This document shows positions 1,064-59,207 of a stretch of DNA of 64,000 nt, in pieces. A program made the translations under genes and the position numbers. Where the stretch lies: contig NZ_RJJD01000003.1 of NCBI RefSeq assembly GCF_003721515.1, positions 310,001-374,000 of the forward strand. Reading direction: 5' to 3'. This DNA is from Rufibacter latericius (lineage in GTDB: Bacteria > Bacteroidota > Bacteroidia > Cytophagales > Hymenobacteraceae). The notes under the pieces are model-generated. The model was not told where the DNA came from. It worked only from the letters and a program-made list of their open reading frames with translations, and made no database searches. Each line of letters starts with the position of its first letter. The first letter of the stretch is position 1.

Positions 1064-1099
1064 GTTTAAAGGCCGTTTTCCCGAAAATAGCCTCAAAAC
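1064..1099. repeat. Intergenic palindromic element, copy 1
   Basis: GTTT...TTTTC-cc-GAAAA...AAAAC frame. Thirteen of 17 arm positions form Watson-Crick pairs and one more is a G-T wobble. It lies between two divergent genes, so it cannot be only a terminator. Confidence 0.75.
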
Positions 1100-1150
1100 A
1101 GCTTTTCATATTTACTCTGGATGAAGTATCTTTCTACAAAATCCAAACGA

Positions 1151-2821
1151 ATGAACAGACGAAATTTCCTAAGAACCGGTTCTTTGGCCGGGATCACCTT
1201 ATCAGCTTTCGGGTTGGGCGCCTGCGCAACCACCCCAACGGCTACTGCCGCTCCTGAAACTGCCACCAAAGAAACCACAGGCGAGGCCACTCCTGCGACA
1301 ACTGCGACTACAGACCCAACCGATTTCCAACTGAACGAAGTAACCATCCAGGAACTGCAACGCAAGATGCAGTCCGGTGAGTTGACATCTAAAGCCATTA
1401 CCCAGCTTTATTTAGACCGTATTCAGGCGGTGGACAAAAGCGGACCCAAGATCAACTCGGTGATTGAGGTGAACCCAGACGCCTTGCAGTTTGCCGAGGA
1501 AATGGACCAAGAGCGCAAATCGGGCAAGATACGTGGGCCTTTACACGGCATTCCGGTGATGGTGAAAGACAACGTGGATACCCATGATAAAATGTCTACC
1601 TCGGCCGGTGCCCTGGCGCTCGCCGACAACAAAGCCAACAAAGACGCTTTTATTGTGAGCCAGTTAAGAGCCGCGGGCGCGGTGATCATTGGCAAAACCA
1701 ACCTGAGTGAGTGGGCCAACTTCCGGTCTACTAACTCTTCCAGCGGCTGGAGCGGACGCGGTGGGCAAACTAAAAACGCCTACGTGCTGGACCGTACTCC
1801 CTGTGGCTCCAGCTCCGGATCAGGGGTGGCTGTGGCGGCCAACCTATGCGCCGTAGCTGTGGGTACTGAGACCAACGGTTCCATTGTCTGCCCTGCTGCG
1901 GTGAGCGGTGTGGTAGGCTTTAAACCCACCGTGGGCTTGGTGAGCCGCTCGGGCATCATTCCAATTTCCCACACCCAGGACACTGCCGGCCCCATTGCCA
2001 GAACCGTGACCGATGCCGCCATCCTCATGGGCGTATTGGCCGGCGTGGACCCTAACGATGCCGCCACCAAAGAAAGCACCGGCAAAGCGCATACCGATTA
2101 CACCAAATTCCTGGACGCGAACGCCCTGCAAGGGAAGCGAATAGGCGTGGAGAAATCTTTCCTGGAAGGCCACGTGGCCATTGACGCCCTGCTGCGCCAG
2201 GCATTGGATCAGCTAAAAAGCAAAGGCGCTACCATTGTGGAAGTAGAAGCCATGAAAAGCATCCGGGATGTCTCCAGAGACAGCTTCAAGATTCTGCAGT
2301 ACGAGTTCAAAGACGGCGTAAATAAGTACCTGGCAACGGCCAATGCCCAAGTGAAAACCTTGAAAGACGTGATTGAATTCAACAAGCGGAACGAGAAAAC
2401 CTCCATGCCTTTCTTCAAGCAGGAGATTCTGGAGATGTCTGACAAACTGGGCGACCTGAACACGAAGGAGTACAAAGAAGCGGTGAAGAAACAGGTTTCC
2501 GGTTCCCGGACGGCTATTGACAAGATCCTGAAGGACAACAAACTGGATGCCATCGCGGGCCCTACCTACGGTCCATCGTGGTGCATTGATTTGGTGAATG
2601 GTGACTCTTTCACGGGCTACGGCATGTCTACTCCGGCGGCTATTTCGGGGTACCCGCATGTGACGGTTCCTTTGGGTCAGGTGCAGGGCTTGCCGGTGGG
2701 TATTTCCTTCTTTGCGGGTCCGTACTCAGAGCCCAAACTGTTCGGGATTGCATATGCCTACGAGCAACTCTCCAAGCATCGTAAGGCACCACAATTCCTG
2801 AAAACCACCAATCCGTCCTAA
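1151..2821 (+). CDS. Tat-exported amidase-signature lipoprotein
   Basis: Amidase-signature hydrolase acting on amide bonds. The start is taken at 1151, which gives MNRRNFLRTGSLAG, a twin-arginine signal; an ATG 30 bp upstream only adds an unsupported extension. A Cys in GLGACATTP looks like a lipobox, so the enzyme is probably folded before export and lipid-anchored. The Ser-cisSer-Lys machinery is visible: Lys in GIPVMVKDN, cis-Ser in CGSSSGSGVAVAAN, nucleophile Ser in GTETNGSIVCPAA. The extracytoplasmic location and family suggest peptide or amino-acid amide hydrolysis rather than the GatA role in tRNA amidation, but the substrate cannot be read from sequence. It ends in TAA and is monocistronic, followed by a repeat-rich spacer. 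Confidence 0.9.
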   Translation: MNRRNFLRTGSLAGITLSAFGLGACATTPTATAAPETATKETTGEATPATTATTDPTDFQLNEVTIQELQRKMQSGELTSKAITQLYLDRIQAVDKSGPKINSVIEVNPDALQFAEEMDQERKSGKIRGPLHGIPVMVKDNVDTHDKMSTSAGALALADNKANKDAFIVSQLRAAGAVIIGKTNLSEWANFRSTNSSSGWSGRGGQTKNAYVLDRTPCGSSSGSGVAVAANLCAVAVGTETNGSIVCPAAVSGVVGFKPTVGLVSRSGIIPISHTQDTAGPIARTVTDAAILMGVLAGVDPNDAATKESTGKAHTDYTKFLDANALQGKRIGVEKSFLEGHVAIDALLRQALDQLKSKGATIVEVEAMKSIRDVSRDSFKILQYEFKDGVNKYLATANAQVKTLKDVIEFNKRNEKTSMPFFKQEILEMSDKLGDLNTKEYKEAVKKQVSGSRTAIDKILKDNKLDAIAGPTYGPSWCIDLVNGDSFTGYGMSTPAAISGYPHVTVPLGQVQGLPVGISFFAGPYSEPKLFGIAYAYEQLSKHRKAPQFLKTTNPS

Positions 2822-2823
2822 GC

Positions 2824-2859
2824 ATTTAGGCCAGAATTCCAGAAATCGGCTCTAAAACA
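2824..2859. repeat. Intergenic palindromic element, degenerate copy
   Basis: The right half matches the family (GAAATCGGCTCTAAAAC) and the left half is eroded. It starts two bases after the amidase stop. Confidence 0.45.
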
Positions 2860-2915: not shown

Positions 2916-3003
2916 GTCCTCTTGGAAAGATCTTGTGGATGTACTCGAAAGGCTGAGAGTAGGCGCTATTCTGGTTCGCTCACAAGATCTTTCCAGGATG
3001 ACA
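2916..3003. repeat. MITE-like 88-bp inverted repeat
   Basis: The arms carry a perfect 15-bp match (TGGAAAGATCTTGTG at 2923-2937 against 2981-2995) that extends imperfectly to about 22 bp. A 43-bp middle with no coding potential separates them. It lies between convergent genes. The layout fits a small non-autonomous mobile or extragenic repeat; no second copy is seen in the window. Confidence 0.55.
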
Positions 3004-3111
3004 AAAGGGAGTGGAGTATTTTAAAATCAAGGAAGATTAGGTGCTTTCAGGATTAATGCTTTTCGCCTATTACTCTGAATTTCAATTTAAAAGCTTAATT
3101 TCAATGAAACA

Positions 3112-3144
3112 AAACGGGCTTGAACATGATGTTCAAGCCCGTTT
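3112..3144. terminator. Hairpin, probable terminator between convergent genes
   Basis: Perfect 15-bp stem (AAACGGGCTTGAACA / TGTTCAAGCCCGTTT) with loop TGA. The A-rich left side and T-rich right side would let it act in both directions, between the amidase and the PepSY gene. Confidence 0.7.
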
Positions 3145-3203
3145 GCATTTGACGCTAAACCTAAATTTTCCGCCGGAGGCGCACTACCTTCACGGCAGAC
3201 TTT

Positions 3204-3238
3204 GTTTTGGGGCTCTTTTCAGGAAATCAGCCCCGAAA
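3204..3238. repeat. Intergenic palindromic element
   Basis: Family frame GTTTTGGGGCTC-TTTTCAGGAAA-TCAGCCCCGAAAT; the GGGGCT and AGCCCC arms pair. It lies 12 bp from the stop codon of the minus-strand PepSY gene. Confidence 0.7.
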
Positions 3239-3250
3239 TAAGTTGAAAGA

Positions 3251-4561
3251 CTAGACTCTGGTGACCGCTGGCCTAGCGGAAACACTTACCAGCTTTTTAG
3301 ATTTTTTCTTGAGTTTGTTCCACCAGATCAGGGTACCGGTAATAGGCAAACTGGTGGCGATCAGGCAACAGATGAAATAGATGATCTTGGAGAATGTTCC
3401 GAAGATTTCGCCCAGGTGCAGGCCTCGCACGGATGCCGCAATTTTCTCGTTCAGCTTTTTATCAGAGAACTTCTCCACCTTCAGGGCTTGGCCGGTGTAC
3501 TGATCCAGCTGTACCTTATCGGAGGCTGAAAGGGCGAAGAACCCGGACTGGGACTTGTTCAAGACCACGGATCCGGTAGAATCAGCGGGCAACGAGATGC
3601 GGTAATTTCCTTCATAAGGCAGAATACCATTAGCGGTTTGAATATAATCGGCGATGGTGGGCTTCTGGTTTGTCATCCCGGCGAGGTTAGACTCCAGGGG
3701 TTTTTCAAACTTCTGCTTGAAGATTTTATCGCCCAGAACGGCGCTGGCTCCATCTCGGTACCATTCAAACGACCAGCAAAGCCCGGTCAGGGCCATGATC
3801 AGCAACAGGAAAGAGGAATAGAACCCCAGCGAGTTGTGCAGGTCATGGTTGATGCGTTTCCAGTTTCCGTCGGTTTTTATTTTCAGGCCCTGCTTCCAGT
3901 TCTTGAGCTTCTTGGGGAACCAGATCACCAGTCCGGTAATAATAATGAACACGAAGATGATGGTGGAAGCGCCCACGATGATTTTACCAGGGTTGAGGGA
4001 ACCAGGCTCCCCTTTCACCAGCAACGTGCGGTGCAGTCCCTCTACGGCTTCGAAAAACCCATGCGCCGGGCCCACAGTGGTACCTTTTACTTCTCCGGTA
4101 TATTGGTTGACCAGGTAAGTGGTGCCACGACCGCCGCCGCCAGGGCCACCTTTGCCGCCCTTCTTGCCTTCTCCCTTGCCTCCGGATGGACCTTGCGCCA
4201 AGGCTTTCGGACCCTCAGCGCTTTTGGCTTTATCGCTTTCAGGTTTTCCTTTCTTGCCTCCCTCCTCTTTTTTGAGGGTAAGGCGGTAGGGTTTAGTAGG
4301 GTCCTGCGGAATCTGCAACGCAGTAACGTTTCCTTTTTGGGTGCTTTTCAACTTGGCAATCAATTCATCCGGTGAGAGGGCTACGGCATTGGCCGGTACC
4401 TGCACCTGGTATTTTTCTGGTTCCAGCGCTTCTTCTATCTCGGTATGAAACGTGAAGATGGTACCGGTCAGGCAGACCACAAACAACACCAGGCCGCTGG
4501 CTAAACCTAACCAAAGGTGGATGTCGTTGAATAATTGACGCAAGGTGAACCCCTTTTTCAT
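3251..4561 (-). CDS. PepSY-associated membrane protein
   Basis: PepSY_TM family protein of 436 residues. An N-terminal helix (about 18-38, LGLASGLVLFVVCLTGTIF) is followed by a periplasmic region, two further helices about 200-270, and a last helix near 395-415 ending in a basic tail. Family members are inner-membrane proteins, some of which act as ferric-siderophore reductases or assist iron uptake; conserved His residues (NDIHLWLG, NDLHNSLGFY, LHLGEIFG) could bind haem. Residues about 100-150 are an unusual Gly/Lys-rich insert in the first periplasmic domain. No TonB receptor is adjacent, so the iron role is inferred from the family. A good Bacteroidota-type promoter lies about 125 bp upstream of the start. 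Confidence 0.85.
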   Translation of the reverse strand: MKKGFTLRQLFNDIHLWLGLASGLVLFVVCLTGTIFTFHTEIEEALEPEKYQVQVPANAVALSPDELIAKLKSTQKGNVTALQIPQDPTKPYRLTLKKEEGGKKGKPESDKAKSAEGPKALAQGPSGGKGEGKKGGKGGPGGGGRGTTYLVNQYTGEVKGTTVGPAHGFFEAVEGLHRTLLVKGEPGSLNPGKIIVGASTIIFVFIIITGLVIWFPKKLKNWKQGLKIKTDGNWKRINHDLHNSLGFYSSFLLLIMALTGLCWSFEWYRDGASAVLGDKIFKQKFEKPLESNLAGMTNQKPTIADYIQTANGILPYEGNYRISLPADSTGSVVLNKSQSGFFALSASDKVQLDQYTGQALKVEKFSDKKLNEKIAASVRGLHLGEIFGTFSKIIYFICCLIATSLPITGTLIWWNKLKKKSKKLVSVSARPAVTRV

Positions 4562-4595
4562 GAATGCTTCTTCTTATTGACTACTTGATTTCGGC

Positions 4596-4629
4596 TTTGA
4601 GGCTGTTTTAAGGAAATCGGGTTTAAAAC
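4596..4629. repeat. Intergenic palindromic element
   Basis: TTTGAGGCTGTTTTAAGGAA...TTTAAAAC frame in the leader between the promoter at 4687-4718 and the PepSY start, so it would be transcribed as 5' UTR. A second, half-length copy (TTTAGGCCTTTTTCCGAAAG) starts near 4861. Confidence 0.65.
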
Positions 4630-8343: not shown

Positions 8344-8379
8344 GTTTCGGCGGCATTTTCCTAAAGCAGCCGTAAAACG
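8344..8379. repeat. Intergenic palindromic element
   Basis: GTTTCGGCGGCATTTTC...AGCCGTAAAACG; CGGC(GG) pairs with GCCG. It lies between two same-strand genes, 28 bp after the terminator, so termination is already provided for. Confidence 0.7.
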
Positions 8380-8971: not shown

Positions 8972-8978
8972 AGCCGCA

Positions 8979-11832: not shown

Positions 11833-12372
11833 TCAGCAGCCGCCTTTTCGTGGGACACGTTTAAAAATTTCTTTACCATCCCGTTCCACGTAGTCGCCCG
11901 ATACGATTGGATATGAATACTTGGGCGCATGTGATACGGTACGGCTTCTTATGATTATTCTGTCGTTAACTTTCAGGCTGTGCAATTGCTCAAGTTGCGC
12001 CTTTTCCGGCTCAAATTTTACAATGTAATCGTCACCATTTATCCTGACCATCACTCCGAAACCTAATCGTGAGCCTGGCGGAAGAGAAAGAGAGGTTATA
12101 ACTCCCTCCATATTGGTATAATCCCTAATGGCCTTATTGATTTTAGCCTCACCGGCAAACACTTTTTTACCTGCGGGGGATGCTTCCCATTCTTTGTACT
12201 TTATACCTTCAGGGGTAGCCTCCCATTCTTTCAGTGCGGCTTCCCTTTCAGAAGCAGAGAGCGGCTTCGGGGTTGGTTTTTCAGAAGTTTCCTTTTTGAC
12301 TTCTTGATTTGCAAATACTAGCCCGCTTACCACAACCAGCGGTAAGATCAGTGCATAAATAATTTTTTTCAT
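11833..12372 (-). CDS. Secreted 179-residue protein with WEA(T/S)P repeat
   Basis: The signal peptide (MKKIIYALILPLVVVSGLVFA) ends at about residue 21. A charged linker contains two near-identical units, EWEATPEGIKYK and EWEASPAGKKVF, near residues 49-72. The remaining roughly 100 residues look like one small beta-rich domain (GFGVMVRINGDDYIVKFEP, KVNDRIIIRSRTV). I do not recognise the family. It is divergent from the membrane-anchored regulator next door with 150 bp between the starts, so it is a natural candidate for that regulator's target or its periplasmic ligand partner; this is inference from layout. Confidence 0.7.
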   Translation of the reverse strand: MKKIIYALILPLVVVSGLVFANQEVKKETSEKPTPKPLSASEREAALKEWEATPEGIKYKEWEASPAGKKVFAGEAKINKAIRDYTNMEGVITSLSLPPGSRLGFGVMVRINGDDYIVKFEPEKAQLEQLHSLKVNDRIIIRSRTVSHAPKYSYPIVSGDYVERDGKEIFKRVPRKGGC

Positions 12373-12522
12373 ATTTTCTGTACTTTTGTTTAAAATCGAT
12401 CTTTCTCCTGAGAAATCAGTTCCGTTTATGGTTGGTGCAATAAATATACGTTTATAGTGCTCAGCCCTAGAGACTTTGCCTGTAAATAAGAGTGTAAACT
12501 TTGTAAATTATTTCTTGACATT

Positions 12523-13455
12523 ATGTTTTTTCCAAGAAATCTGTTGCCAGTCAAACGAAAACACCGGGGCGGATTATTACTACTCACTTTTATCTCTATC
12601 ATCTGCCTAGCTTTCAGCATGACCGGCAATGATGACTTTGACTTTGCCAGAAGGGAAATTATGCTTCGTCGAATCGGACATGAAACACTCCTTCAGTCGG
12701 GCGACAGTGTATCAAGGGTACTACCGGTGAAGAAAATCGGCGAAAATGAATACCAGATCAGTTTTGAGAATGCGTTTACCTTTCAACCCGATTCGCTGGT
12801 GCATACGACTAAGCGTTTGCTGGCCAACGACCCGCTGGCAAGTGATTATGTGGTTAACGTTCTGAATTGTGGCGATTCTAGCGTAGCTTATGGGTATGCT
12901 ATTTCCGGAAATAAAAAAGATGACCTTATAGCCTGCCTGGGCAGAAAGCAGCCCAAAGCATGTTATCTTATAAACATCACCTTTCAATCTGCGGAAACAA
13001 ATACAGCAAAGATTGGGTATCTGCTGGGCAGCCTGGCTTTATTAGCGGTTATGGGTTATATTCTTTTGAGACCTGCTAAACCGCTAAGTGTTCTACCCGA
13101 AGATCAGTCTGCTATACCCGAGGATTATCTTACCGGATTCCAGAATCCGTCTACCGGTAAGTTTACCTTGGGGTCGATGTCGTTCGATGCGGAGGCGCGT
13201 AAGCTCATGATAAATGAAAAGACCATGGACTTGACCAAAACAGAAACCCGTTTACTACGCATTTTCGCGTTGACTCCTAACGAGGCTGTAGAGAGAAGCC
13301 GGCTGCAGAAAGAGATATGGGAAGATGAAGGTGTTATAGTAGGCCGCAGTTTGGATATGTTCATATCAAAACTTAGAAAAAAATTGGAATTTGATCCCAA
13401 CATCAAGATTGTTGTCATACGCGGCAAAGGATATAAGCTTGAAATTAGTGCTTAA
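12523..13455 (+). CDS. Membrane-anchored winged-helix regulator (ToxR-like logic, other topology)
   Basis: 310 residues. An N-terminal helix (about 18-34, LLLLTFISIICLAFSM) is followed by an extracytoplasmic domain of about 130 residues with two or three Cys (LNCGDSS, ACLGRKQPKACY). A second helix lies near 165-183 (IGYLLGSLALLAVMGYILL). After a linker comes an OmpR/PhoB-type winged helix from about 215 to the end (FDAEARKLMINEKTMDLTKT, LDMFISKLRKKLEFDP, IRGKGYKLEIS). It appears to be a one-component sensor that stays in the membrane and binds DNA directly, with no receiver domain. ToxR and CadC have the DNA-binding domain first; here it is last. The likely target is the divergent secreted-protein gene. 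Confidence 0.85.
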   Translation: MFFPRNLLPVKRKHRGGLLLLTFISIICLAFSMTGNDDFDFARREIMLRRIGHETLLQSGDSVSRVLPVKKIGENEYQISFENAFTFQPDSLVHTTKRLLANDPLASDYVVNVLNCGDSSVAYGYAISGNKKDDLIACLGRKQPKACYLINITFQSAETNTAKIGYLLGSLALLAVMGYILLRPAKPLSVLPEDQSAIPEDYLTGFQNPSTGKFTLGSMSFDAEARKLMINEKTMDLTKTETRLLRIFALTPNEAVERSRLQKEIWEDEGVIVGRSLDMFISKLRKKLEFDPNIKIVVIRGKGYKLEISA

Positions 13456-14088
13456 GAAAATCCTCCTGCCTCGAACCGAGGTTATTAGATTTCATTAGCC
13501 ATTTGTAAAACCCTAAAAATAGCAGCAGCTGACCCGGTAATATATCTGGTAGGTTAATAGCTGCCGCTATGGCCGCCGGCAGCTCTTCCAAGGTCAGGTC
13601 AGTGCAGTAGCCGGGGCGCCAGTTGTCTCCAGTACTCGGCTAGGGAACCGGCGTCAAATGCATCAAACCCGGTTACCCTATCAAGGTCATAGTCACCCTC
13701 AGGTCAACTTCCCTGTCTGCAGCGATAGGGATGGCAATGCGGTCAGGGCCTCCCGCCGGTCTGCCTTTTATCTCAAAGGAATTCGAACCGATCGCATTCC
13801 AGGCCTTTGCTACCGGGCGTCCTAATTGCTCCCGCACCCAGAGACTTTCGACCTGCCAGTCCTCTATCCTTTCTATTCTACTGTCTCGTTCCGGATAGTA
13901 GTTGGAGGTGTCAATGCAAAAATCAATATGGATAAGGTTCGATAATTCAATACTACGGACTACTTCATAGCCCTTAAGTGAAAGCTGATGGGGATTTTTT
14001 TTAGATCTCCTACCGGGGTGAGACGAACCTTATCACCCACGATTGGCAGTTTGGTTATCAATATGGAGTCGCGATTAATTTTATTCAT
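13445..14088 (-). pseudogene. Frameshifted third gene of the kinase-regulator operon
   Basis: ATG at 14088 lies 4 bp after the regulator stop. It opens a frame reading MNKINRDSILITKLPIVGDK, then VRLTPVGDLKK, then runs into an A8 tract (13995-14002). Moving to the frame equivalent to A9 continues plausibly as NPHQLSLKGYEVVRSIEL and LIHIDFCIDTSNYYPERD up to a TAA at 13673-13675. Further protein-like stretches follow in two more frames: GFDAFDAGSLAEYWRQLAP (stop at 13599-13601), then YCTDLTLEELPAAIAAAINL ending at 13445, overlapping the 3' end of the convergent gene. So three frame changes are needed, or two small genes overlap. I do not recognise the product. Decay is likeliest; slippage at A8 is possible for the first shift. 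Confidence 0.6.
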
Positions 14089-14092
14089 TAAG

Positions 14093-14812
14093 TCAAATCC
14101 CACGCACGCGAATTGTTTTCTCCATTTCCTGCCGATAGTTCCTTCCTACAGGAAGTTCCTTGCCCATTACCTCCACATGGCAGGGGGAGAATGAATCTAC
14201 CTTATCCAAAGCCACTATGTACGACCGATGGATGCGGGCAAAGCTCTCCTCAGGCAGCATCTCTTCCAGAGAGGAGATGGTTTGCTTGGGTACAATCTGC
14301 TTGGAAGTAGTGACGATGCGCACATAGTCCTTCAGGCTTTCGATGTAAAGAATATCTGACACCATTACCTTCACCATCTTGCGGTCTACCCTGAAATAAA
14401 GAAACCTCTCGCTTGAGGCGTGTTGGGTATGGGGAGCAGAAGTGGTGGCACCTGAAAGTTCTGGTTGCTGTATTTTCTGGATGGCCCGCAGAAACCTTTC
14501 AAAGGAGATGGGTTTAAGTAAATAATCCACTACATCCAGGTCAAAAGCCTCTAGGGCGTACTCTGGGTAAGCAGTGGTGAAAATAACTTTGGGCGGGTGG
14601 CGCAGGGTCCTAAGGAAATGGGTTCCCAACAACTGGGGCATCTTTATGTCCAGGAACATCAGGTCTATGGGTTGCCGCTGAAGTTCTTCCAACGCTGCAA
14701 TGGCATTATGGCATTGCCCCACCAATTGCAGCATGGGCAAAGAAGCAATATGAGACTGCAACACGGCCTGGGCAGGCGGTTCATCATCTACTAGAAGACA
14801 TTTGATTTTCAT
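14093..14812 (-). CDS. LytTR-family response regulator
   Basis: 239 residues: an N-terminal receiver (CLLVDDEPPAQ acidic pocket; phospho-acceptor Asp in LMFLDIKMPQ near 56; TTAYPEYAL and LLKPISFERF signatures) and a C-terminal LytTR DNA-binding domain (ILYIESLKDYVRIVTTSKQI, FARIHRSYIVALDKVDSF). It should be phosphorylated by the kinase encoded just upstream; the ATG overlaps the kinase 3' end by four bases (14809-14812), indicating translational coupling. Target genes are unknown; LytTR regulators bind paired direct repeats, often near their own operon. Confidence 0.93.
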   Translation of the reverse strand: MKIKCLLVDDEPPAQAVLQSHIASLPMLQLVGQCHNAIAALEELQRQPIDLMFLDIKMPQLLGTHFLRTLRHPPKVIFTTAYPEYALEAFDLDVVDYLLKPISFERFLRAIQKIQQPELSGATTSAPHTQHASSERFLYFRVDRKMVKVMVSDILYIESLKDYVRIVTTSKQIVPKQTISSLEEMLPEESFARIHRSYIVALDKVDSFSPCHVEVMGKELPVGRNYRQEMEKTIRVRGI

Positions 14813-15996
14813 AGAGATTCATTGTAAAGCGGTTCTTCGGCGGATTTTCTGAACGTCAACCTGGTTTCGGTAGAATCCTGCTCGTTGCCTTGCTCCTCCA
14901 ATTGGAGTGTGAGGGTCACCAGAAAGGTTTCTGCTTCCTGCCAGATGCTCAACTCATGTATATTAGGATAAAGCAATTCTAATCTTTTCCGGACATTGGC
15001 AAGCCCAATCCCAGGCGCTACTGTATGCTCTCCCGGAAGTTGCGCCTCAGGAACGGCGTTCATGACCTTGAACTTCAACGTATGGCCCCTCACCAAAAGA
15101 TCAAGGCTCACCCAAGCCTGGTCCAGTTGTTCGCTTGCACCGTGTTTGAAGCTGTTTTCCAGAAAAGGCAGTAAAAGCAAAGGCGCGATCAGCATCCCTT
15201 CCAAATTCCCTTCAATGTTGACAGAAAGGTCAAGGCGTTGACCATACCGCATCCTCTCCAGCGCCAGGTAGTCCTGTAGCATCCCTATTTCTTTGGCGAG
15301 CGGCACTTTGGCCACGTTGCATTCATAAAGCATGTAGCGCAGCAGGCCAGACAGCTTGATCACCACCTCGGGGGCTTGTACCGATTGCACCAAGGTCAGG
15401 GAATACAGGTTATTGAGCGTATTAAACAGAAAATGCGGATGAACCTGGGCCTTCAACAATTTTAACTCTGCCTTCAGCTTCTCCCCCTCCAGTTGGATAG
15501 AAAGTTGGTTTTTATAGTACCAATGTTTCGCCAGTTTGATAGCCCCGGCAAACCCCGCAATACTTAAACCGCCCCGCAATCCCGCCATCAGGCCGAAGTA
15601 AAAACTGCTGCTTGGTTTCTCTACCCGGAAATAGTCCCGGAAAAAGACAACCAGGGTATCTGATATAAGATACGAAAGCGAGGAGGCGAGCAGGACGGTG
15701 GCGATCAAGCCAAGTAAAAATTCTGCATACCTCCCTTTGAACAGAAACCGGGGAATGAGCAGGTACATGAACGTGTAACTCAGCAACATGTGCGTAGGCA
15801 GAAAAGCCAACCCTTCTAGAAAAGAGAGCTTATAAAGGTTCGTCAGGTAGATAGGTGGTGAGATGGTGCCGCCCACCGGTTTGCTTCCATAGACAAGAGT
15901 AAAAAAGACCACGCAGACTGACCAGAAAACCAAGTGCCTGGCTACCCGATACTTTAGCTCCTCCGCGAATATGAACTTTGTGCCTACGGTTGCCAT
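14809..15996 (-). CDS. LytS-type sensor histidine kinase
   Basis: Start chosen at ATG 15996 (MATVGTKFIFAEEL), preceded by AAAAAAAGGAGCTTGTT, a clear Shine-Dalgarno sequence; a GTG 39 bp upstream opens the same frame but has no such site. Four or more membrane helices fill residues about 20-165. They are followed by a His_kinase domain with the phospho-acceptor in QVHPHFLFNTLNNLYSL and a HATPase with LLLLPFLENSFKHG and PGIGLANVRKRLELLYP. There is no large extracellular sensor domain, so the signal is probably sensed in or near the membrane. First gene of an operon with the LytTR regulator and the frameshifted gene. Confidence 0.92.
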   Translation of the reverse strand: MATVGTKFIFAEELKYRVARHLVFWSVCVVFFTLVYGSKPVGGTISPPIYLTNLYKLSFLEGLAFLPTHMLLSYTFMYLLIPRFLFKGRYAEFLLGLIATVLLASSLSYLISDTLVVFFRDYFRVEKPSSSFYFGLMAGLRGGLSIAGFAGAIKLAKHWYYKNQLSIQLEGEKLKAELKLLKAQVHPHFLFNTLNNLYSLTLVQSVQAPEVVIKLSGLLRYMLYECNVAKVPLAKEIGMLQDYLALERMRYGQRLDLSVNIEGNLEGMLIAPLLLLPFLENSFKHGASEQLDQAWVSLDLLVRGHTLKFKVMNAVPEAQLPGEHTVAPGIGLANVRKRLELLYPNIHELSIWQEAETFLVTLTLQLEEQGNEQDSTETRLTFRKSAEEPLYNESL

Positions 15997-16244
15997 AACA
16001 AGCTCCTTTTTTTGCTTTAAGATACAAGAAGGCACCTCAAAAGTCCACTTGGAAATCTCTTTGTAGACGAATGACTGGTTTCAGTCGCTGAACGGCAAAA
16101 AGCACCCTATTTTTCGGATAATCCTCCGGCAACGGTAGAGTAGCGATGGTTTAGTTACGACGGGCGAATAGCTGGGCAAAGGGTTTTCCCGCAGGTTACT
16201 TTAGCCTTACATCATCAAGGCATTTTAAACTAACCATTACTTCC

Positions 16245-16550: not shown

Positions 16551-16652
16551 AAAACCAAAAGAGGAAACATTGATTGAAATTTCCTCTCCGCAATCTAAAA
16601 TGAAGGCTAAAAACGGAGAACTGGGAGTCAGCCGAACAGGCCATGGGTTTCC

Positions 16653-16687
16653 GTTTTTAGTCCATTTTCCTGAAACACTGCTAAAAC
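16653..16687. repeat. Intergenic palindromic element
   Basis: GTTTTTAGTCCATTTTCCTGAAACACTGCTAAAAC. The outer TTTTTAG/CTAAAAC and inner TTTTC/GAAA parts are conserved while the middle is loose. Confidence 0.65.
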
Positions 16688-29419: not shown

Positions 29420-29456
29420 GATTTTGAGGCAGTTTTCACGAAAGTAGCCTTAAAAG
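29420..29456. repeat. Intergenic palindromic element
   Basis: GATTTTGAGGCAGTTTTCACGAAAGTAGCCTTAAAAG. GAGGC faces GCCTT and the inner core is TTTTCacGAAA. Confidence 0.7.
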
Positions 29457-30109: not shown

Positions 30110-31900
30110 TCATTTCTGAAGCGGGTCTGAAAGGGTTTTCAGGAAAACAATCACTGCTTTTTGTTCTTCTGGGCTCAACTCCAGTTTGTCATTGGGCAGG
30201 GTTTGGTGTTCCAGGTTTAGACCTAATCCAACGCCTCCACCGTTGTTGTAAAATTCCATGACTTCTTCCAGGGTTTCATAAGCACCATTATGCATGTAAG
30301 GCGCTGTTTTGGCAATGTTTCTCAGGGTTGGGGTCTTAAACGCAAATTTCAGTTCATCAATCTTGTTGTGGACGAATCTTCCTTCATCCGGGTCAAGGAC
30401 GGCCTTTTTACTTTTGGGAGACTGCAGCACGCCTAGTACCTCTCCTTCTGAGTTGGCAAAGGAAGGTCCGGCAGTGCCGTTGAAGACCGGCATGAAATGA
30501 CAGGTGCCGCACTTGGCTTTGCCCATGAACAGGTTAAAACCAGTGATTTCCTCCCGAGTCATTTGGTTCTGGTCACCCCGCATGTACAAATCGAACCGAG
30601 ACTGGAACGGAGCCAAAGAACGAACATAGGCAGCCAGCGCCATCATCACGTACCTGGGTTTTATCTCCTGCTCCATGGTAGGGAAAGCGCCTTTGAAGGC
30701 CTGCACGTAAGCAGGTTTCTGCCCTAATCTTTGGGCCGCTTCGGCCACTGAGGCATGCATTTCGTCTTTGTTCGCGATCACATCCATGGCTTGGTTTTCC
30801 AAGGTTGGGGAGCGCATGTCATAAAACTGAGCATGCTGAAACCCGGCATACAGCAAGGTAGGTGCATTTCTGCCCACAAACCGGCCGACCTGTAAAGCCG
30901 AGCTTTTAGGAAGGCCATCGGTGAAGGCTAATTCGGGTTGGTGACAACTGCCGCAGGTACGGGCTCCGCCCGATACAATGGGATTGTAAAACAAGTCTTT
31001 CCCCAAGGCTACTTTCTGGGGGGTAGGCCGGGCCTCAAGATTGCCTACAAAGTAATTCGGGTTAAGGGCATCCTGATCAAAAAGGGTTTCGGCCTGAGGG
31101 TTTATGGCCAAGGCGGACTCCACAAACGGAATTCCCAGTTCTTTCTGCCAAGCGACCATCTGGCGGGTAATGGGATTGGCGAAATCAACGATAAACTTCA
31201 TCCGGTCAAAACCATTGAAATCTATGGTGCGCTGGGTTAGGGCAATGCCTTGAGATAAAGAATGCTCTAAATCGCGATTCTCACCGAAAAAGGAAAGCAC
31301 CTCCCGTACCGAGGTCAAGGCAGCGGCTGTCTCGTTTATGCCTGTTTTCGCCAAAGGAGCATCAAAACCCGAAATTCCCAGGATCATGGTCCTGAACACC
31401 TCCTGCTTGGTTGCCTCCAGAATATGTCCTTCGGTCAGGATGGTTTCATCCAGAATGACGCGGGTTCTTTTGAAGGTGGACAGGAAGGAATTTATTTCCC
31501 GGATGAGTTCGGGCCGTTCTTTATCCTGCAGGGCGGGGAACACCATCTCTTCCATCACCTGCAACCCCGAGGGCGGGAAAACCCGGGTTTCCTCAATTTC
31601 GATCTCGGGTAAAGGTGCGCCATTCATTTCTTTGCTGGCGGTTGGCGCGTAGTATTCCGTGAACCATTCTATTTTCTTGTAGGCCATCCGGGTCTGGAGA
31701 AACGCCTGCATTACTTCCTCAGATGATCCGTTCTGAGCTGTTCTCAGCAGTTGTTGCAGGGCTACGTTCTGCAAAGAATCAAATTGTACTAGCAGATGAG
31801 CTTTGACCTCCTGTGGTATTTTTGGCTCCTTTTCAGGAAAACAGCCTGAAAACAGAAAGTTGAACAATAGGAAAATCCCCAGTTTATATTTTCGCTTCAT
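30110..31900 (-). CDS. Imelysin-like / diheme cytochrome c peroxidase fusion lipoprotein
   Basis: 596 residues. A lipoprotein leader ends FLFSGC. Residues about 30-250 are a helical imelysin-like domain as found in iron-regulated exported proteins. Residues about 280-596 are a MauG/CcpA-type peroxidase with two c-type haem sites, CGSCH near 315 and CGTCH near 463, and the usual TPTLRNIAKTAPYMHNG segment with its Met/His region. It should reduce peroxide or oxidise a partner in the periplasm. The next gene upstream on the same strand is a PhoX-like lipoprotein, but a terminator hairpin separates them. One copy of the genome's palindromic repeat lies inside the signal-peptide codons (31818-31853). 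Confidence 0.9.
   Translation of the reverse strand: MKRKYKLGIFLLFNFLFSGCFPEKEPKIPQEVKAHLLVQFDSLQNVALQQLLRTAQNGSSEEVMQAFLQTRMAYKKIEWFTEYYAPTASKEMNGAPLPEIEIEETRVFPPSGLQVMEEMVFPALQDKERPELIREINSFLSTFKRTRVILDETILTEGHILEATKQEVFRTMILGISGFDAPLAKTGINETAAALTSVREVLSFFGENRDLEHSLSQGIALTQRTIDFNGFDRMKFIVDFANPITRQMVAWQKELGIPFVESALAINPQAETLFDQDALNPNYFVGNLEARPTPQKVALGKDLFYNPIVSGGARTCGSCHQPELAFTDGLPKSSALQVGRFVGRNAPTLLYAGFQHAQFYDMRSPTLENQAMDVIANKDEMHASVAEAAQRLGQKPAYVQAFKGAFPTMEQEIKPRYVMMALAAYVRSLAPFQSRFDLYMRGDQNQMTREEITGFNLFMGKAKCGTCHFMPVFNGTAGPSFANSEGEVLGVLQSPKSKKAVLDPDEGRFVHNKIDELKFAFKTPTLRNIAKTAPYMHNGAYETLEEVMEFYNNGGGVGLGLNLEHQTLPNDKLELSPEEQKAVIVFLKTLSDPLQK
31818..31853. repeat. Palindromic element inside a coding region
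   Basis: On the coding strand GTTTTCAGGCTGTTTTCCTG, then AAAAGGAGCCAAAAAT: full family frame with AGGCT facing GGAGCC. It encodes FSGCFPEKEPK, including the lipobox Cys. Confidence 0.65.
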
Positions 31901-33651: not shown

Positions 33652-33687
33652 GTTTCAGGATCGTTTTGGGGAAATCGGCTAGAAAAC
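33652..33687. repeat. Intergenic palindromic element
   Basis: GTTTCAGGATCGTTTTGGGGAAATCGGCTAGAAAAC; the outer GTTT/AAAAC and inner parts are kept. It lies in the divergent spacer 33501-33865, which holds no other gene. Confidence 0.55.
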
Positions 33688-38159: not shown

Positions 38160-38194
38160 GTTTATAGCCCGTTTTCGTGAAAGGAGGTTCAAAG
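38160..38194. repeat. Intergenic palindromic element
   Basis: GTTTATAGCCCGTTTTCGTGAAAGGAGGTTCAAAG, ending 16 bp before the minus-strand regulator's 3' end. Core conserved, arms weak. Confidence 0.5.
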
Positions 38195-38209
38195 CTTAAT
38201 TGCTAACCT

Positions 38210-42621: not shown

Positions 42622-42660
42622 CCGTTTAGGGCCTGTTTTCGTAAAACAGGCCCTAAACGG
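42622..42660. repeat. Intergenic palindromic element, perfect copy
   Basis: CCGTTTAGGGCCTGTTTT, loop CGT, then its exact reverse complement: an 18-bp perfect stem. This is the best reference copy of the family. Confidence 0.92.
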
Positions 42661-43847: not shown

Positions 43848-43973
43848 AAAGGATAATCTACTAAACATGGACTGGTACCGGGCACGAACCAAAGCGGTAC
43901 TGCCCGGCAAATTTACCAGTTTACTGGGTTGAACTCTCTGTTTACGGAAAAAGACGAAGGTAGCCTAAAAGCC

Positions 43974-45113: not shown

Positions 45114-45149
45114 CTTTTAAGCCCGTTTTGTTTAAAACATGCCTAAAAC
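45114..45149. repeat. Intergenic palindromic element
   Basis: CTTTTAAGCCCGTTTTGTTTAAAACATGCCTAAAAC. CGTTTT/AAAACAtG inner and TTTT/AAAA outer parts pair; a few mismatches in the arms. Confidence 0.65.
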
Positions 45150-46900: not shown

Positions 46901-46936
46901 GTTTTAGCCTTGTTTTCAGAAAATTAGCCCTAAAAG
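46901..46936. repeat. Intergenic palindromic element
   Basis: GTTTTAGCCTTGTTTTCAGAAAATTAGCCCTAAAAG, in the divergent spacer before msrB. The 46740-47050 spacer shows nothing else. Confidence 0.65.
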
Positions 46937-53638: not shown

Positions 53639-53662
53639 CAGGAAGGTAATAAGCAATTCCCG

Positions 53663-53697
53663 GTTTGACGTTCCTTTTAAGAAAAAGGCCCTAAAAC
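53663..53697. repeat. Intergenic palindromic element
   Basis: GTTTGACGTTCCTTTTAAGA, then AAAAGGCCCTAAAAC. Inner CCTTTT faces AAAAGG; outer arm mismatched. Confidence 0.55.
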
Positions 53698-56809: not shown

Positions 56810-57132
56810 AACTGCCTTATTTTTGCCTTCAGATAACTGGGATCATGTAAAGGCAATTTCTGGCACTCAGCCTTTGCTTTTTGTTGATTAGTGTTTCCTG
56901 CCCGGGCACTAGGGACGGATACTTTCTGTGCCTTTTTCGGAAACTAGCCCTTAAACAGAGGAATCACAGACCTTGGAAGAGGTACTCTAAAAGGAATCAG
57001 CTTACCTTTAACGATAGAATTTGCATCGATTAGCAAAAAATAAACACCTTAAAAACGCGCAATTACCTTCCTGACTCTCACCGAATTGTCCTTGAAATTG
57101 GGTAAATTAGTTAAGCTCTAAAGGGAAGGAAT
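56810..57132. other. 323-bp spacer, one palindromic element
   Basis: Contains a family copy at 56922-56956 (CTTTCTGTGCCTTTTTCGGA, then AACTAGCCCTTAAAC) and a purine-rich GGGAAGGA before the next start. No gene seen. Confidence 0.5.
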
Positions 57133-57903
57133 ATGCAAGCTGTTCAAGACCAATGTACCACTACAGATGAGGTTATTGCTGAACTTGACAAAATCATTCA
57201 GCACTGTATCATGACCAACGACAGGGCCGGGTATTTTGCTGTCCTGTATTACTGCGTCACCTGCCGGGTGAAGGAAGGAATTCTCAAGCACGAGTTTGAT
57301 GATAATCCCCGCATGGAACTCCTGGATGTGGTCTTCGCCAACCGTTACTTAGAAGCGTGGGGCCTTTGGAAAGCGGGGAAGAAACCAACCCTTTCCTGGG
57401 AAGTTGCCTTTAGAAACTGTGGATCTTCTGAGGCTATTATTCTACAGCACCTGTTGCTGGGCATTAACGCCCACATCAACCTGGATCTGGGCATTGCTAC
57501 GGCACAGGTCATGAAAGGCCAGGATATTCAATTGATCAGAAATGACTTCAACCGCATCAACGCCATCCTGAAAGCCATGGTAGACCGCGTGCAGGACAAC
57601 CTGGGCAAAGTGTCTCCCTTGTTCCGTCTGCTGGATGTTTACGGCAAAAACCATGATGAACTTCTTACGGGTTTCAGTATTCAGGTTGCCCGGGAAGGTG
57701 CCTGGCGCTTTGCCGAAGACTTACACCTGACCTCTGGCCTGCCGTTTCAGACCTGTTTACAGATGAGAGACCAGAAAATAGCCGCGCTCGCCAACCGAAT
57801 AGCGCACCCTTTGGGGCAGTTTTTGAGAATCATGCTCAAAACCATCCGGACCTCAGAATGGCGCCTGCCGGCCACAAACATCAGATTACTGCGCCTAAGC
57901 TGA
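57133..57903 (+). CDS. DUF5995 family protein
   Basis: 256 residues, cytoplasmic, all-helical. Family motifs: AGYFAVLYYCVTCRVKEGI, VVFANRYLEAW, ILQHLLLGINAHINLDLGIA and AREGAWRFAEDL. The His in NAHINLDLG and others (HDEL, IAHPLGQ) could bind metal; Bacteroidota and actinobacterial members are uncharacterised. GGAAGGAAT just before ATG is Shine-Dalgarno-like. Convergent with the MFS gene, 32 bp apart. Confidence 0.8.
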   Translation: MQAVQDQCTTTDEVIAELDKIIQHCIMTNDRAGYFAVLYYCVTCRVKEGILKHEFDDNPRMELLDVVFANRYLEAWGLWKAGKKPTLSWEVAFRNCGSSEAIILQHLLLGINAHINLDLGIATAQVMKGQDIQLIRNDFNRINAILKAMVDRVQDNLGKVSPLFRLLDVYGKNHDELLTGFSIQVAREGAWRFAEDLHLTSGLPFQTCLQMRDQKIAALANRIAHPLGQFLRIMLKTIRTSEWRLPATNIRLLRLS

Positions 57904-57935
57904 AGGTTATAGCTCTTCCTTTATTACGGACAACT

Positions 57936-59111
57936 TTAGGCTACCTCTTTCGCTTCTACCTCAACAGCATCGGTCGTAGAGTTCTCCATCCGGAAGAACA
58001 ACCGGGCAATGGGAATGAGCATGAGACCCGCCAAGGCGAAGGCGATGAACGAAACCTTCAGGTTAAACGCGTGGGCCAGGTACCCGATCATGGGCGGCCC
58101 GATAAGCATGCCCACAATCCCGAAGGTGGCGATGAGCGAGATGGCAATGCCCGGCGAATAGGTTTTAGAGGCCCCGGCCAGGGTGTAGGTCATGGGAATC
58201 ACAGAGGCGGTACCAAACCCCACCATGGAAAACCCGATCATGGCGGGCCAGAAGCTGGGGAACAGGATGGCCAGGGTGATTCCAGAGAAAATAAATACCC
58301 CGCTCAGCATGTAGGTGATTCTCATGCCAATCTTGTCGATGATGATATCAGACATAAACCGCGAGAGCGCCATGAAAGACATAAACGTGAGGTACCCGGC
58401 CGTGAACACCTCTTCGCGCACTACCTGCTGAAAGTAAATGCCGCTCCAGTCAAACATGCCCCCTTCGCAAACCGCGGCAAAGAACACCAGCAAACCTAAG
58501 TACAGAATGTAAGGATCGGGTTTCTTGAAGGACTGTTTATTGCCCGAGGTAGCGGTGTCGTTCTGAATTAAGAAGCGGAAAGCCAGTACGGTAGCCAAAA
58601 AGCTGAGGATAGATACAGTAATCAGGTGCGGCACCATGGGCACTTTGAGGGTAATGAGCAAGGTGGTAAATCCTACGCCCATGATGCCGCCGGTGCTCCA
58701 GAGCCCATGGAAAGATCCGTTGATTTTCTTCTCAAACTGCTTCTGTACGGTAATGGCCTGCGTATTCACCGCGATGTTGAAGATGCGCATGCTCAGTGAA
58801 AACAGAAAAAGCACCATGGCCAGAGCAACCGGCGTAGAAGCTAACCCAATAAATGAAAGCGCGATGGAATTCAACAGAAACCCTACGGCCAGCGGAATTC
58901 GGGTCTCAAATTTAGACACCAGCCACCCAGACAAGGGCACTCCAATCAAGGATGAAACCGGCATGGTGAGCAGCACGGTGCCCAGTTCTGCCTCGTTCAG
59001 GTGCAAAGCTTGCTTAATGGTAGGAATTCGGGAAGCCCAGCTGGCAAAATTAAATCCGGAGAGGAAAAAGAAGACACTCAGCGCAACCCGCTGCTTTTGT
59101 ATTAACTGCAT
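57936..59111 (-). CDS. Major facilitator superfamily transporter
   Basis: 391 residues from ATG 59111 (MQLIQKQRVALSVFFFLSGF). Twelve membrane helices. Helix 1 leads to NFASWASRIPTIKQALHLNE, the start typical of the YbjJ/FucP-related group. Loop 2-3 has SGWLVSKFETR and loop 8-9 carries MSDIIIDKIGMR. Substrate unknown, perhaps sugars or metabolites. The start at 59162 would add an unsupported 17 residues. No linked enzymes. Confidence 0.88.
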   Translation of the reverse strand: MQLIQKQRVALSVFFFLSGFNFASWASRIPTIKQALHLNEAELGTVLLTMPVSSLIGVPLSGWLVSKFETRIPLAVGFLLNSIALSFIGLASTPVALAMVLFLFSLSMRIFNIAVNTQAITVQKQFEKKINGSFHGLWSTGGIMGVGFTTLLITLKVPMVPHLITVSILSFLATVLAFRFLIQNDTATSGNKQSFKKPDPYILYLGLLVFFAAVCEGGMFDWSGIYFQQVVREEVFTAGYLTFMSFMALSRFMSDIIIDKIGMRITYMLSGVFIFSGITLAILFPSFWPAMIGFSMVGFGTASVIPMTYTLAGASKTYSPGIAISLIATFGIVGMLIGPPMIGYLAHAFNLKVSFIAFALAGLMLIPIARLFFRMENSTTDAVEVEAKEVA

Positions 59112-59171
59112 GGTACTGGAATAATGGCGCAAAGATGCGCTATTAATTTTGAGGGAAAGCACAAAATTCTT

Positions 59172-59207
59172 GTTTAGCCGGCCCTTTCAGAAAACGGGAT
59201 TAAAATG
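59172..59207. repeat. Intergenic palindromic element
   Basis: GTTTAGCCGGCCCTTTCAGA, then AAACGGGATTAAAATG, 12 bp before the end of the minus-strand esterase gene. Partial pairing. Confidence 0.5.

What the first reader, a model, noticed from the sequence alone, without database searches (positions are those of the whole stretch)
1064..59207. About 27 dispersed palindromes with conserved frame and covarying arms
Most intergenic regions carry one or two elements of about 36 bp: GTTT, 5-8 variable bases, TTTTCnnGAAA, 5-8 complementary bases, AAAAC. Arms differ widely (ACCGCC/GGCGGT at 53736; AGGGCCT/AGGCCCT at 42622; GAGGC/GCCTC at 10690) yet pair, so structure rather than sequence seems to be kept. 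They occur in convergent, tandem and divergent spacers (1064, 4596, 46901) and often beside a proper terminator (8344, 35469), so they are not simply terminators. Options: a REP/MITE-like family copied by a transposase elsewhere, a nucleoid or topoisomerase site, or a mRNA end-processing signal. I do not know a described family with this form.
Basis: partly seen in the sequence, partly recalled or inferred. Interest (0 to 1): 0.8.

Follow-up and report, generated by a model that had tools for sequence, protein, structure and literature searches.

The report
One dyad DNA site per spacer
In Rufibacter bacteria more than half of the gaps between genes carry a 36-base symmetric DNA site whose T/A frame is strongly conserved while its arms drift, which looks like a binding site for an unknown protein rather than an RNA hairpin or a jumping element.

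Summary
The elements are real: 30 in the window at 24 bits or more, 0 in the reversed window; 566 against 15 reversed in 864 kb, roughly 3,600 per genome. The genus is Rufibacter. All 16 of its genomes searched have the family in mass; sampled other genera have none or a few copies. What is kept is sequence. Between two species the core TTTT/TT positions differ at 2.3%, arms at 26%, flanks at 25-50%, and in 55 of 59 testable intervals an element is still present. It is strand-symmetric, about one per spacer, rare in genes, mostly without target-site duplications, and follows neither terminator loss nor RAYT genes clearly. Best reading: a double-stranded-DNA site for an unidentified dyad-binding protein at transcription-unit boundaries. 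Species dialects, near-identical copies in one species, and fewer terminator-like hairpins in some Rufibacter leave mobile and terminator readings open. Five aimed searches of one open-access library found no description.

The parts
1064..1099 (.). dyad element
   Evidence: 41.8 bits; tandem spacer; an element in the same spacer in G005, G013, G015, none listed in G003
2823..2858 (.). dyad element (weaker)
   Evidence: 26.5 bits; convergent spacer
3204..3239 (.). dyad element
   Evidence: 38.7 bits; convergent spacer, elements also in G013, G015, G003
4594..4629 (.). dyad element in a divergent spacer
   Evidence: 36.6 bits; none in the same spacer of G015, the one genome compared
8344..8378 (.). 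dyad element
   Evidence: 32.3 bits
8979..9013 (.). dyad element
   Evidence: 32.5 bits
9221..9256 (.). dyad element (weaker)
   Evidence: 24.7 bits
10690..10725 (.). dyad element, better-paired arms
   Evidence: 39.1 bits
10773..10808 (.). dyad element
   Evidence: 29.6 bits
16653..16687 (.). dyad element
   Evidence: 29.4 bits
23296..23331 (.). dyad element
   Evidence: 27.6 bits
23501..23535 (.). dyad element
   Evidence: 28.0 bits
27490..27525 (.). dyad element
   Evidence: 29.3 bits; of five genomes with this spacer only G013 has one
29421..29456 (.). dyad element
   Evidence: 32.8 bits
31333..31368 (.). dyad element, inside a long called ORF
   Evidence: 27.4 bits; ORF
31818..31853 (.). 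dyad element near the 5' end of a called ORF
   Evidence: 37.3 bits; ORF
33652..33687 (.). dyad element
   Evidence: 29.6 bits
35469..35504 (.). dyad element overlapping the start of a terminator-like hairpin
   Evidence: 31.5 bits; sequence, hairpin by eye
38160..38195 (.). dyad element
   Evidence: 32.8 bits
42479..42514 (.). dyad element sharing its right half with the next one
   Evidence: 30.5 bits; sequences
42624..42658 (.). near-perfect palindrome, arms 22 nt with one mismatch at the centre
   Evidence: 40.1 bits; arm length
45114..45149 (.). dyad element; the same spacer is occupied in 10 of 10 other genomes compared
   Evidence: 35.5 bits; (in G008 and G007 the interval is over 2 kb)
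46901..46936 (.). dyad element in a divergent spacer; the same spacer is occupied in 7 of 7 other genomes compared
   Evidence: 36.4 bits; (G001's copy is weak, 17.5 bits)
53662..53697 (.). dyad element
   Evidence: 29.8 bits
53736..53771 (.). dyad element, well-paired arms, convergent spacer
   Evidence: 34.4 bits
54797..54831 (.). dyad element in a divergent spacer
   Evidence: 32.5 bits; present in 2 of 4 genomes compared
56922..56956 (.). dyad element
   Evidence: 28.5 bits
57808..57842 (.). dyad element (weaker)
   Evidence: 27.1 bits
59172..59206 (.). dyad element (weaker)
   Evidence: 25.0 bits; present in 1 of 5 genomes compared
61843..61878 (.). weak match inside a called ORF, possibly chance
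   Evidence: 24.2 bits

Best explanation
The element is a 36-38 bp dyad-symmetric site in double-stranded DNA, recognised by a not yet identified Rufibacter protein that binds as a dimer or dimer of dimers. Its contacts are the TTTT tract (half positions 3-6) and the TT tract (14-15), about one helical turn apart in each half. There is about one per intergenic spacer, most reliably where a spacer has room away from promoters. Shown: the sequence-specific frame, strand symmetry, purifying selection on the frame at orthologous sites of one species pair, about one per spacer, rarity in genes. Inferred: that a protein binds it, and that its job is at transcription-unit boundaries (insulation, RNA-polymerase roadblock, or anchoring or topology of the chromosome between genes). 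The perfect palindromes are explained as occasional copying of one arm onto the other by template switching at a quasi-palindrome, not as selection on RNA structure (inferred).
For: Real family: 566 against 15 reversed in 864 kb. In 50 one-to-one ortholog pairs between G008 and G012, core positions changed at 14 of 600 (2.3%), arms at 156 of 600 (26%), ungapped flanks at 500 of 1000 (50%); flanks aligned with gaps 24.7%. 40 of 50 pairs have no change at 12 core positions against 1.7 expected at the gapped flank rate. In 55 of 59 testable intervals an element is present in G012 (at least one G012 element is counted for two neighbouring G008 elements); the other 4 intervals are much shorter in G012 and none is a clean empty site. 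Orthologous spacers over pairs of genomes (not independent): both occupied 108, neither 31, one only 44 of 183 (expected both 92.3, neither 15.3). Left and right halves, read along the upstream gene in 181 tandem copies, differ at p<0.05 in 1 of 24 positions. Spacers with 0/1/2/3+ elements in G000: 165/265/50/1 against about 260/131/55/36 for random placement; four other genomes 250/252/44/3 against 327/141/52/29. Occupancy at 80-120 bp: convergent 20/25, tandem 21/51, divergent 4/7 in G000; 22/26, 22/61, 2/12 in the four others. Half-sites rarely occur alone (at 18 bits 5 isolated, 299 inside elements, 1 in the reversed control). Only 8 of 108 (G008) and 8 of 98 (G012) lie fully inside blast-supported coding sequence that covers 68% of the DNA, and some of that support may be shadow frames.
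Against: No binding protein was identified. Species have different consensus 'dialects', which for thousands of sites is easier to picture with copying or drive. G014 has 45 pairs of identical cores against 1.2 expected under an independent-site model (maximum 10 in 30 simulations), which looks like recent spread. Covariation is small but real: double changes at paired positions 25 against 14.6 expected, 11 of them paired in both species, against 0-3 in slid registers; in A2 71 cells against 44 shuffled (inflated by dialects). In G000 pairing exceeds control in tandem and convergent but not divergent spacers (z 3.9, 3.9, -0.8; the 12 others 0.4, 2.9, -0.3), as a transcribed hairpin would predict. 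'One per spacer with room' does not by itself name a function. Spacers between genes not syntenic in the other species are occupied about as often as syntenic ones (10/19 against 46/84; 7/15 against 54/88). The selection estimate comes from one species pair and from sites detected in both. Gene calls are crude ORF calls.
Confidence: 0.5

Rival explanations
1. A mobile or formerly mobile short palindrome (REP- or MITE-like), amplified in the ancestor of Rufibacter and again in single species, surviving mainly in spacers.
For: Thousands of extragenic palindromic copies. Genus-limited mass occurrence (16 of 16 Rufibacter; 0 of 147 other genomes sampled from the order with the strict pattern; 1-7 model matches in 22 of 104 other genomes of the family). 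Species dialects. Near-identical cores in G014. An excess of 2- and 3-bp flank matches in G003 (0.364 against 0.076 and 0.045 against 0.005, 22 copies). Y1 transposase (RAYT-like) genes in 15 of 16 genomes, with an element within 300 nt downstream in 12 of 20 loci against 0.36 of 143 control ORFs (upstream 7 of 20 against 0.35, both sides 5 of 20 against 0.15). The literature describes Bacteroidetes TnpA-REP genes with atypical hairpins copied elsewhere in the genome (PMC6006769, passages and section 25 read).
Against: No target-site duplications in the other 4 of 5 genomes tested. No clean empty site among the 4 absences. Frame conserved and arms drifting at fixed orthologous sites. About one per spacer instead of clusters. 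G012 has no PF01797 match yet is full of elements, G014 has 6 matches, and 28 of 33 non-Rufibacter genomes have RAYT-like genes without the family in mass. 6 of 20 RAYT-like genes have no element within 300 nt on either side.
Confidence: 0.25
2. A bidirectional transcription terminator or mRNA 3'-end processing or stability signal, working as an RNA hairpin or with a bound protein.
For: High occupancy of convergent spacers even when short, and median 70 nt after the stop in tandem spacers. Slight excess of arm pairing in tandem and convergent but not divergent spacers in G000. More T downstream (0.31 against 0.26). In two of four Rufibacter sets terminator-like hairpins are rarer at gene ends than in Pontibacter (tandem 0.11 and 0.12 against 0.23; convergent 0.23 and 0.22 against 0.32).
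Against: RNA folding energy hardly better than half-swapped chimeras (median -6.15 against -5.90; means -7.72 and -6.43; below -8 in 0.35 against 0.27). Strand symmetry. Terminator-like hairpins are not depleted where the element is present (93 of 286 against 26 of 126), and in the two other Rufibacter sets they are as frequent as in Pontibacter (tandem 0.24, 0.27; convergent 0.33, 0.35). In 51 of 93 cases the element lies beyond the terminator-like site. Long divergent spacers are occupied too (17/19 in G000, 16/27 in four others).
Confidence: 0.14
3. A DNA uptake sequence: the species' competence machinery prefers DNA with its own dialect, so the site spreads by biased transformation.
For: Thousands of copies with species dialects resemble the Neisseriaceae case (PMC3630211, seen as search listing with start of abstract).
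Against: Half-sites are not used alone. The site is a long dyad and is rare in coding DNA. One-per-spacer spacing is not expected from drive.
Confidence: 0.06
4. Chance A/T-rich palindromes around terminators, no family at all.
For: Short T and A tracts are common in spacers; A/T-rich flavobacterial loci give a slight excess over reversed sequence with the same matrix (42 against 34 at 14 bits, 5 against 1 at 20).
Against: Reversed and Markov controls; no excess in Pontibacter plus Cesiribacter loci (5 and 5 at 14 bits) against 45 and 0 in Rufibacter loci.
Confidence: 0.01

Closest known systems
REP / PU / BIME elements (repetitive extragenic palindromes)
   Same: 20-40 bp palindromes in high copy number, proposed roles in supercoiling, termination, mRNA stability (PMC3733652, start of abstract seen in listing); extragenic and frequent at 3' ends of genes (recalled).
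   Different: Fully strand-symmetric with no one-sided tag; frame conserved while arms drift; about one per spacer; kept at orthologous sites between species; weak or no link to RAYT genes.
Atypical REPs of Bacteroidetes TnpA-REP subclass 2.6
   Same: Bacteroidetes; secondary structures with copies elsewhere in the genome (PMC6006769, section 25 read).
   Different: There they flank the tnpA gene; here 5 of 20 Y1_Tnp genes have an element within 300 nt on both sides and 6 of 20 on neither, and the genus-wide mass does not follow the genes. Sequence of the 2.6 REPs not compared (figure not held).
DNA uptake sequences (Neisseriaceae DUS; Pasteurellaceae USS recalled)
   Same: Thousands of copies, species dialects.
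   Different: DUS are short and non-palindromic and act singly (recalled); here the complete dyad is the unit and it avoids genes.
Intrinsic terminators
   Same: Inverted repeats in spacers near stop codons.
   Different: No T-run rule, A/T at both ends and centre, poor arm pairing, strand symmetry.
Sites of chromosome-wide DNA-binding proteins (parS, matS, Noc, SlmA sites; recalled)
   Same: Dyad-symmetric, sequence-specific, dispersed.
   Different: Roughly 3,600 copies, about one per spacer, over 36 bp; no known protein matched.

Membership tests
REP in the broad sense | short palindrome, extragenic, high copy number | tested here: met
REP of the RAYT type | tag tetranucleotide at one end (asymmetric element) | tested here: not met
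   halves indistinguishable at 23 of 24 positions; both halves begin GTTT in the consensus
REP of the RAYT type | cognate RAYT gene in the genome, flanked by the element | tested here: not met
   no PF01797 match in G012, no relation of gene number to copies by eye; RAYT-like genes common where the element is not in mass; of 20 RAYT-like genes 5 have an element within 300 nt on both sides, 6 on neither (control ORFs both sides 0.15); downstream 12 of 20 against 0.36 is a weak signal the other way
MITE / insertion sequence derivative | target-site duplication | tested here: not met
   3-9 bp matches at or below control in 4 of 5 genomes; G003 (22 copies) shows an excess of 2- and 3-bp matches
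MITE / insertion sequence derivative | insertion polymorphism with precise empty sites | tested here: inconclusive
   4 absences in 59 intervals, all much shorter in G012 and none clean; no closely related strains available
Structured RNA element | compensatory covariation across copies and orthologs | tested here: inconclusive
   weak overall, essentially confined to 7/7 copies; some double changes in orthologs
Structured RNA element | match to a described RNA family | tested here: not met
   only tRNA-Glu in the window at the gathering threshold
Intrinsic terminator | stem that pairs and folds better than chance, one strand | tested here: not met
Intrinsic terminator | substitutes for other terminators | tested here: inconclusive
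   not within G000; against Pontibacter equal in two Rufibacter sets, lower in two
DNA uptake sequence | short word acting singly, also in genes | tested here: not met
DNA uptake sequence | preferential uptake of marked DNA | not testable with these tools
   needs transformation assays
Protein-binding dyad site | dyad-symmetric sequence conservation with helically spaced constrained positions | tested here: met
   per-position divergence; strand symmetry
Protein-binding dyad site | a protein that binds it | not testable with these tools
   no candidate identified

The most novel reading that the evidence does not exclude
Rufibacter has a genus-specific chromosome architecture in which an unknown dyad-binding protein occupies a dedicated site in most spacers between transcription units, a bacterial analogue of boundary or insulator elements. 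Site and protein specificity have shifted together into species dialects.
Probability: 0.3. Interest if true: 0.85.

Novelty: new variant of a known kind. Interest (0 to 1): 0.62.

Why it matters
If a protein marks most spacers of a chromosome with one sequence-specific site, it gives bacteria a boundary element with no described counterpart that I know of, in a genus where it could be removed and replaced site by site. It also shows how an apparent 'covarying hairpin' family can arise from a symmetric DNA site plus rare arm-copying events, a caution for covariation-based RNA discovery. The species dialects make a natural experiment on how thousands of sites change together.

Tried and rejected
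RNA-structure reading: tested by frame-only selection with whole-arm shuffling, per-species shuffles in 14 genomes (excess above 2 sd in G000, G009 and G015; G008 1.9 sd; G011, G012, G007 below the shuffle; the rest within 2 sd), chimera folding, ortholog double changes, context split and counted pairs. Rejected as the main constraint, kept as a minor or mutational signal.

RAYT/REP: (one search placed the ORF in only 10 of 20 loci because it looked at one strand; one search repeats it on the strand named; element density around RAYT-like genes 7.2 per 10 kb against 4.5 in the control stretches). Terminator replacement. Target-site duplications and isolated half-sites. Occurrence in other genera of loci. 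The blind search for short inverted repeats by spacing gave nothing useful. Copies in other genera of the family: a few convincing ones, several near integron attC-like repeats; no shared neighbouring gene that could be the trans factor was seen among the 10 neighbours scanned. The comparison with integron attC ends and with type II CRISPR repeats (which also start GTTTT and end AAAC) was from memory and dropped. Duplicates counted for G010 are an artefact, because the same contig stretch was included twice; I do not use them.

Dropped rows and limits: ortholog divergence used 50 of 108 G008 elements (71 with both flanks mapped, 59 testable, 50 one-to-one with 2-bp centre). Spacer statistics used spacers of 50-1000 bp. 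The R1 search scored only the 52 best candidates per genome (150) with stricter filters, so its counts are saturated in Rufibacter and may miss weak copies elsewhere. Order and family searches are samples. G002 and G006 were searched by pattern, model, one protein and PF01797 and read only as 3-kb loci.

Full report
1. The observation. A half-site matrix trained on 864 kb of the same genome (the window plus two 400-kb stretches) finds 566 elements at 14 bits or more, against 15 in the reversed sequence, and 465 against 2 at 20 bits. Scaled to 5.67 Mb this is roughly 3,000-3,600. In the window there are 30 at 24 bits or more, none in the reversed window, and none in 20 first-order Markov windows. 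The family is real and dense.

2. Where it occurs. Protein matches name the genus Rufibacter (R. glacialis, R. sediminis, R. psychrotolerans, R. ruber are the nearest named records). A strict 36-base pattern with up to 3 mismatches is found in 16 of 16 genomes of the genus (5 to 737 copies) and in none of the other 147 genomes sampled from the order. A sequence-only model built from 56 copies of 14 genomes saturates in all 16 Rufibacter and gives 1-7 matches in 22 of 104 other genomes sampled from the family. A few of these look genuine, some of them near integron attC-like repeats. They may be genes acquired from Rufibacter or a relative; I did not test that. With the same matrix, loci of Pontibacter and Cesiribacter show no excess over reversed sequence (5 and 5 at 14 bits); flavobacterial and other loci, which are A/T-rich, a slight one (42 and 34 at 14 bits, 5 and 1 at 20); four Rufibacter loci 45 and 0.

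3. Sequence or structure. Selecting 617 copies on the T/A frame alone and leaving the seven arm positions out, 38.5% of arm positions are Watson-Crick paired against 34.9% (sd 0.6) after shuffling whole arms among copies. Across 14 genomes the excess is above 2 sd only in G000, G009 and G015. When copies that pair at 7 of 7 are removed, little or nothing is left (0.439 against 0.424, sd 0.009, in G000; 0.572 against 0.580, sd 0.007, in 12 other genomes). The 7/7 copies exceed expectation in tandem, convergent and divergent spacers (12 against 1.0, 7 against 0.4, 3 against 0.3 in G000; 40 against 20.8, 24 against 9.0, 7 against 3.0 in the others). A subset extends with near-perfect complementarity into flanks that are different at each listed locus: in G000 13 of 566 have arms of 20 nt or more with at most one mismatch, up to 35 nt; in G014 17 of 121. 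All-or-none pairing that runs into private flanks fits copying of one arm onto the other (template switching at a quasi-palindrome) better than selection on a hairpin. At 42624 the left arm is the exact complement of the right, while left arms in the same spacer of two other species differ. This is inference from sequence.

4. Selection. G008 and G012 were compared over 260 kb each, about 84% identical at the mapped element flanks. Of 108 G008 elements 71 had both flanks mapped and 59 were testable; in 55 of these intervals G012 has an element, at least one G012 element being counted for two neighbours. The 4 absences have much shorter intervals in G012; none is a precise excision. In 50 one-to-one pairs the core positions (3-6 and 14-15 of each half) changed at 14 of 600, the arms at 156 of 600, the ungapped neighbouring bases at 500 of 1000; gapped flanks give 24.7%. 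40 of 50 pairs have no core change, where 1.7 are expected at the gapped flank rate. Pairs had to be detected in both genomes, which favours the frame, but the undetected sites are at most the 4 absences and the unmapped ones. Arm divergence follows local flank divergence (Spearman 0.47) with only borderline overdispersion (variance 5.94; the simulated 95% bound is 5.96). So elements evolve in place, with the frame under strong purifying selection. Against a purely sequence-based reading, double changes at paired arm positions are 25 where 14.6 are expected, and 11 of 25 keep pairing in both species (slid registers 0-3). These appear partly concentrated in a few well-paired copies.

5. Symmetry and position. 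Read along the upstream gene in 181 tandem spacers, left and right halves differ at p<0.05 at 1 of 24 positions. RNA folding of the elements is hardly better than of half-swapped chimeras (median -6.15 against -5.90, mean -7.72 against -6.43 kcal/mol). There is about one element per spacer: in G000 165, 265, 50 and 1 spacers with 0, 1, 2 and 3 elements against about 260, 131, 55 and 36 (three or more) for random placement by length, and the same tendency in four other genomes. So 316 of 481 spacers of 50-1000 bp are occupied in G000 and 299 of 549 in the four others. Convergent spacers of 80-120 bp are occupied in 20 of 25, tandem in 21 of 51, divergent in 4 of 7. Above 400 bp all classes reach 80-91% in G000 (12/15, 43/47, 17/19); in the four others 13/15, 28/39 and 16/27. 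Few elements lie inside supported coding sequence (8 of 108 and 8 of 98). Across pairs of genomes, 183 orthologous spacers show both occupied 108, neither 31, one only 44.

6. Dialects. The half-site consensus differs by species: G003 GTTTAGGGGCTnTTTTT, G008 and G012 GTTTTTGGCCTGTTTTC, G014 GTTTTCGGGCTCATTTC, G005 GTTTTnGGCCTGTTTTn, and a diffuse form in G000 and several others. The TT at 3-4 and the T tract at 14-16 are common to the 14. G014 has 45 pairs of identical cores against 1.2 expected; outer flanks of its listed copies differ. This is the strongest sign that copying between loci, or very tight selection, has acted recently in one species.

7. What it is not, and how far that is shown. 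Terminator-like hairpins are found at 93 of 286 gene ends with an element and 26 of 126 without, beyond or before the element about equally often (51 of 93 with the element beyond). Against Pontibacter, which lacks the family (tandem 0.23, convergent 0.32), they are as frequent in G000 (0.24, 0.33) and G008+G012 (0.27, 0.35) but rarer in G005+G014 (0.11, 0.23) and in seven other genomes (0.12, 0.22). So replacement of terminators is not supported within G000 and is open for some species. Target-site duplications are absent in four of five genomes; G003, with 22 copies, shows an excess of 2- and 3-bp matches. Y1 transposase (RAYT-like) genes occur in 15 of 16 Rufibacter but not in G012, and in 28 of 33 genomes of other genera in the family. 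Of 20 such genes in Rufibacter, 7 have an element within 300 nt upstream, 12 downstream, 5 on both sides, 6 on neither, against 0.35, 0.36 and 0.15 for 143 control ORFs: at most a weak downstream excess. Isolated half-sites are near control.

8. Mechanism. The two constrained tracts in each half lie about 11 bp apart and are mirrored around a 2-bp centre, the pattern of a dimer or dimer of dimers gripping one face of the helix (inference). Because one copy sits in most spacers that have room away from promoters, on neither strand in particular, I think the most likely job is at the boundary between transcription units: insulation, a two-way roadblock to RNA polymerase, or a chromosome anchor or topology site. 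I put about 0.75 on a protein-bound DNA site of some kind and 0.5 on the reading as stated. The protein is unknown.

9. Novelty. In the broad sense it is a repetitive extragenic palindrome; in the narrow sense (one-sided tag, RAYT) it fails the tests. Five searches of one open-access paper library aimed at it (one search listed 20 of 314 papers) and Rfam at its gathering thresholds gave no description; some searches looked for related systems. RepRanger (PMC12306157, passages searched only) does not name Rufibacter, Hymenobacter or Pontibacter in its main text. PMC6006769 (passages and section 25) describes atypical REPs of Bacteroidetes that were not compared in sequence. Most subscription papers are not in that library.

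Noticed in passing
L243:9285-9357, L244:9349-9422, L252:9729-9805, L245:8486-8545, L250:7108-7168: Copies of the element in genomes of other genera of the family lie within about 3 kb of 60-75 bp repeats that look like integron attC sites (TAACGGC...GTTAGG, recognised from memory), so some may travel on integron cassettes.
   Followed up: partly
window 42479-42514 and 42624-42658: Two neighbouring elements share the unusual right half AACAGGCCCTAAACG although their left halves differ, as if one half had been copied between neighbours.
   Followed up: no
L156-L165 and L199-L201 (G014): One Rufibacter species has a different central tract (CATTTC..GAAATG) and many near-identical copies with unrelated flanks, possibly a recent round of spread.
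   Followed up: partly
Rufibacter sets: Terminator-like hairpins at gene ends are about half as frequent in G005+G014 and seven other Rufibacter as in G000, G008+G012 and Pontibacter in tandem spacers, about two thirds in convergent ones; the reason is unknown.
   Followed up: no
window 36768-37862: Protein matching the spore photoproduct lyase family (PF20903, 306 bits) in a genus not known to me to form spores.
   Followed up: no
window 59220-60644: Erythromycin esterase family protein (PF05139); function not examined.
   Followed up: no
window 43050-43910: HipA-like kinase domain protein (PF20613), possibly part of a toxin-antitoxin pair; neighbours not examined.
   Followed up: no
window 11833-23211: Stretch whose called ORFs mostly have no match in the fetched stretches of other Rufibacter and with few elements; possibly acquired DNA, or simply outside the fetched stretches.
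   Followed up: no
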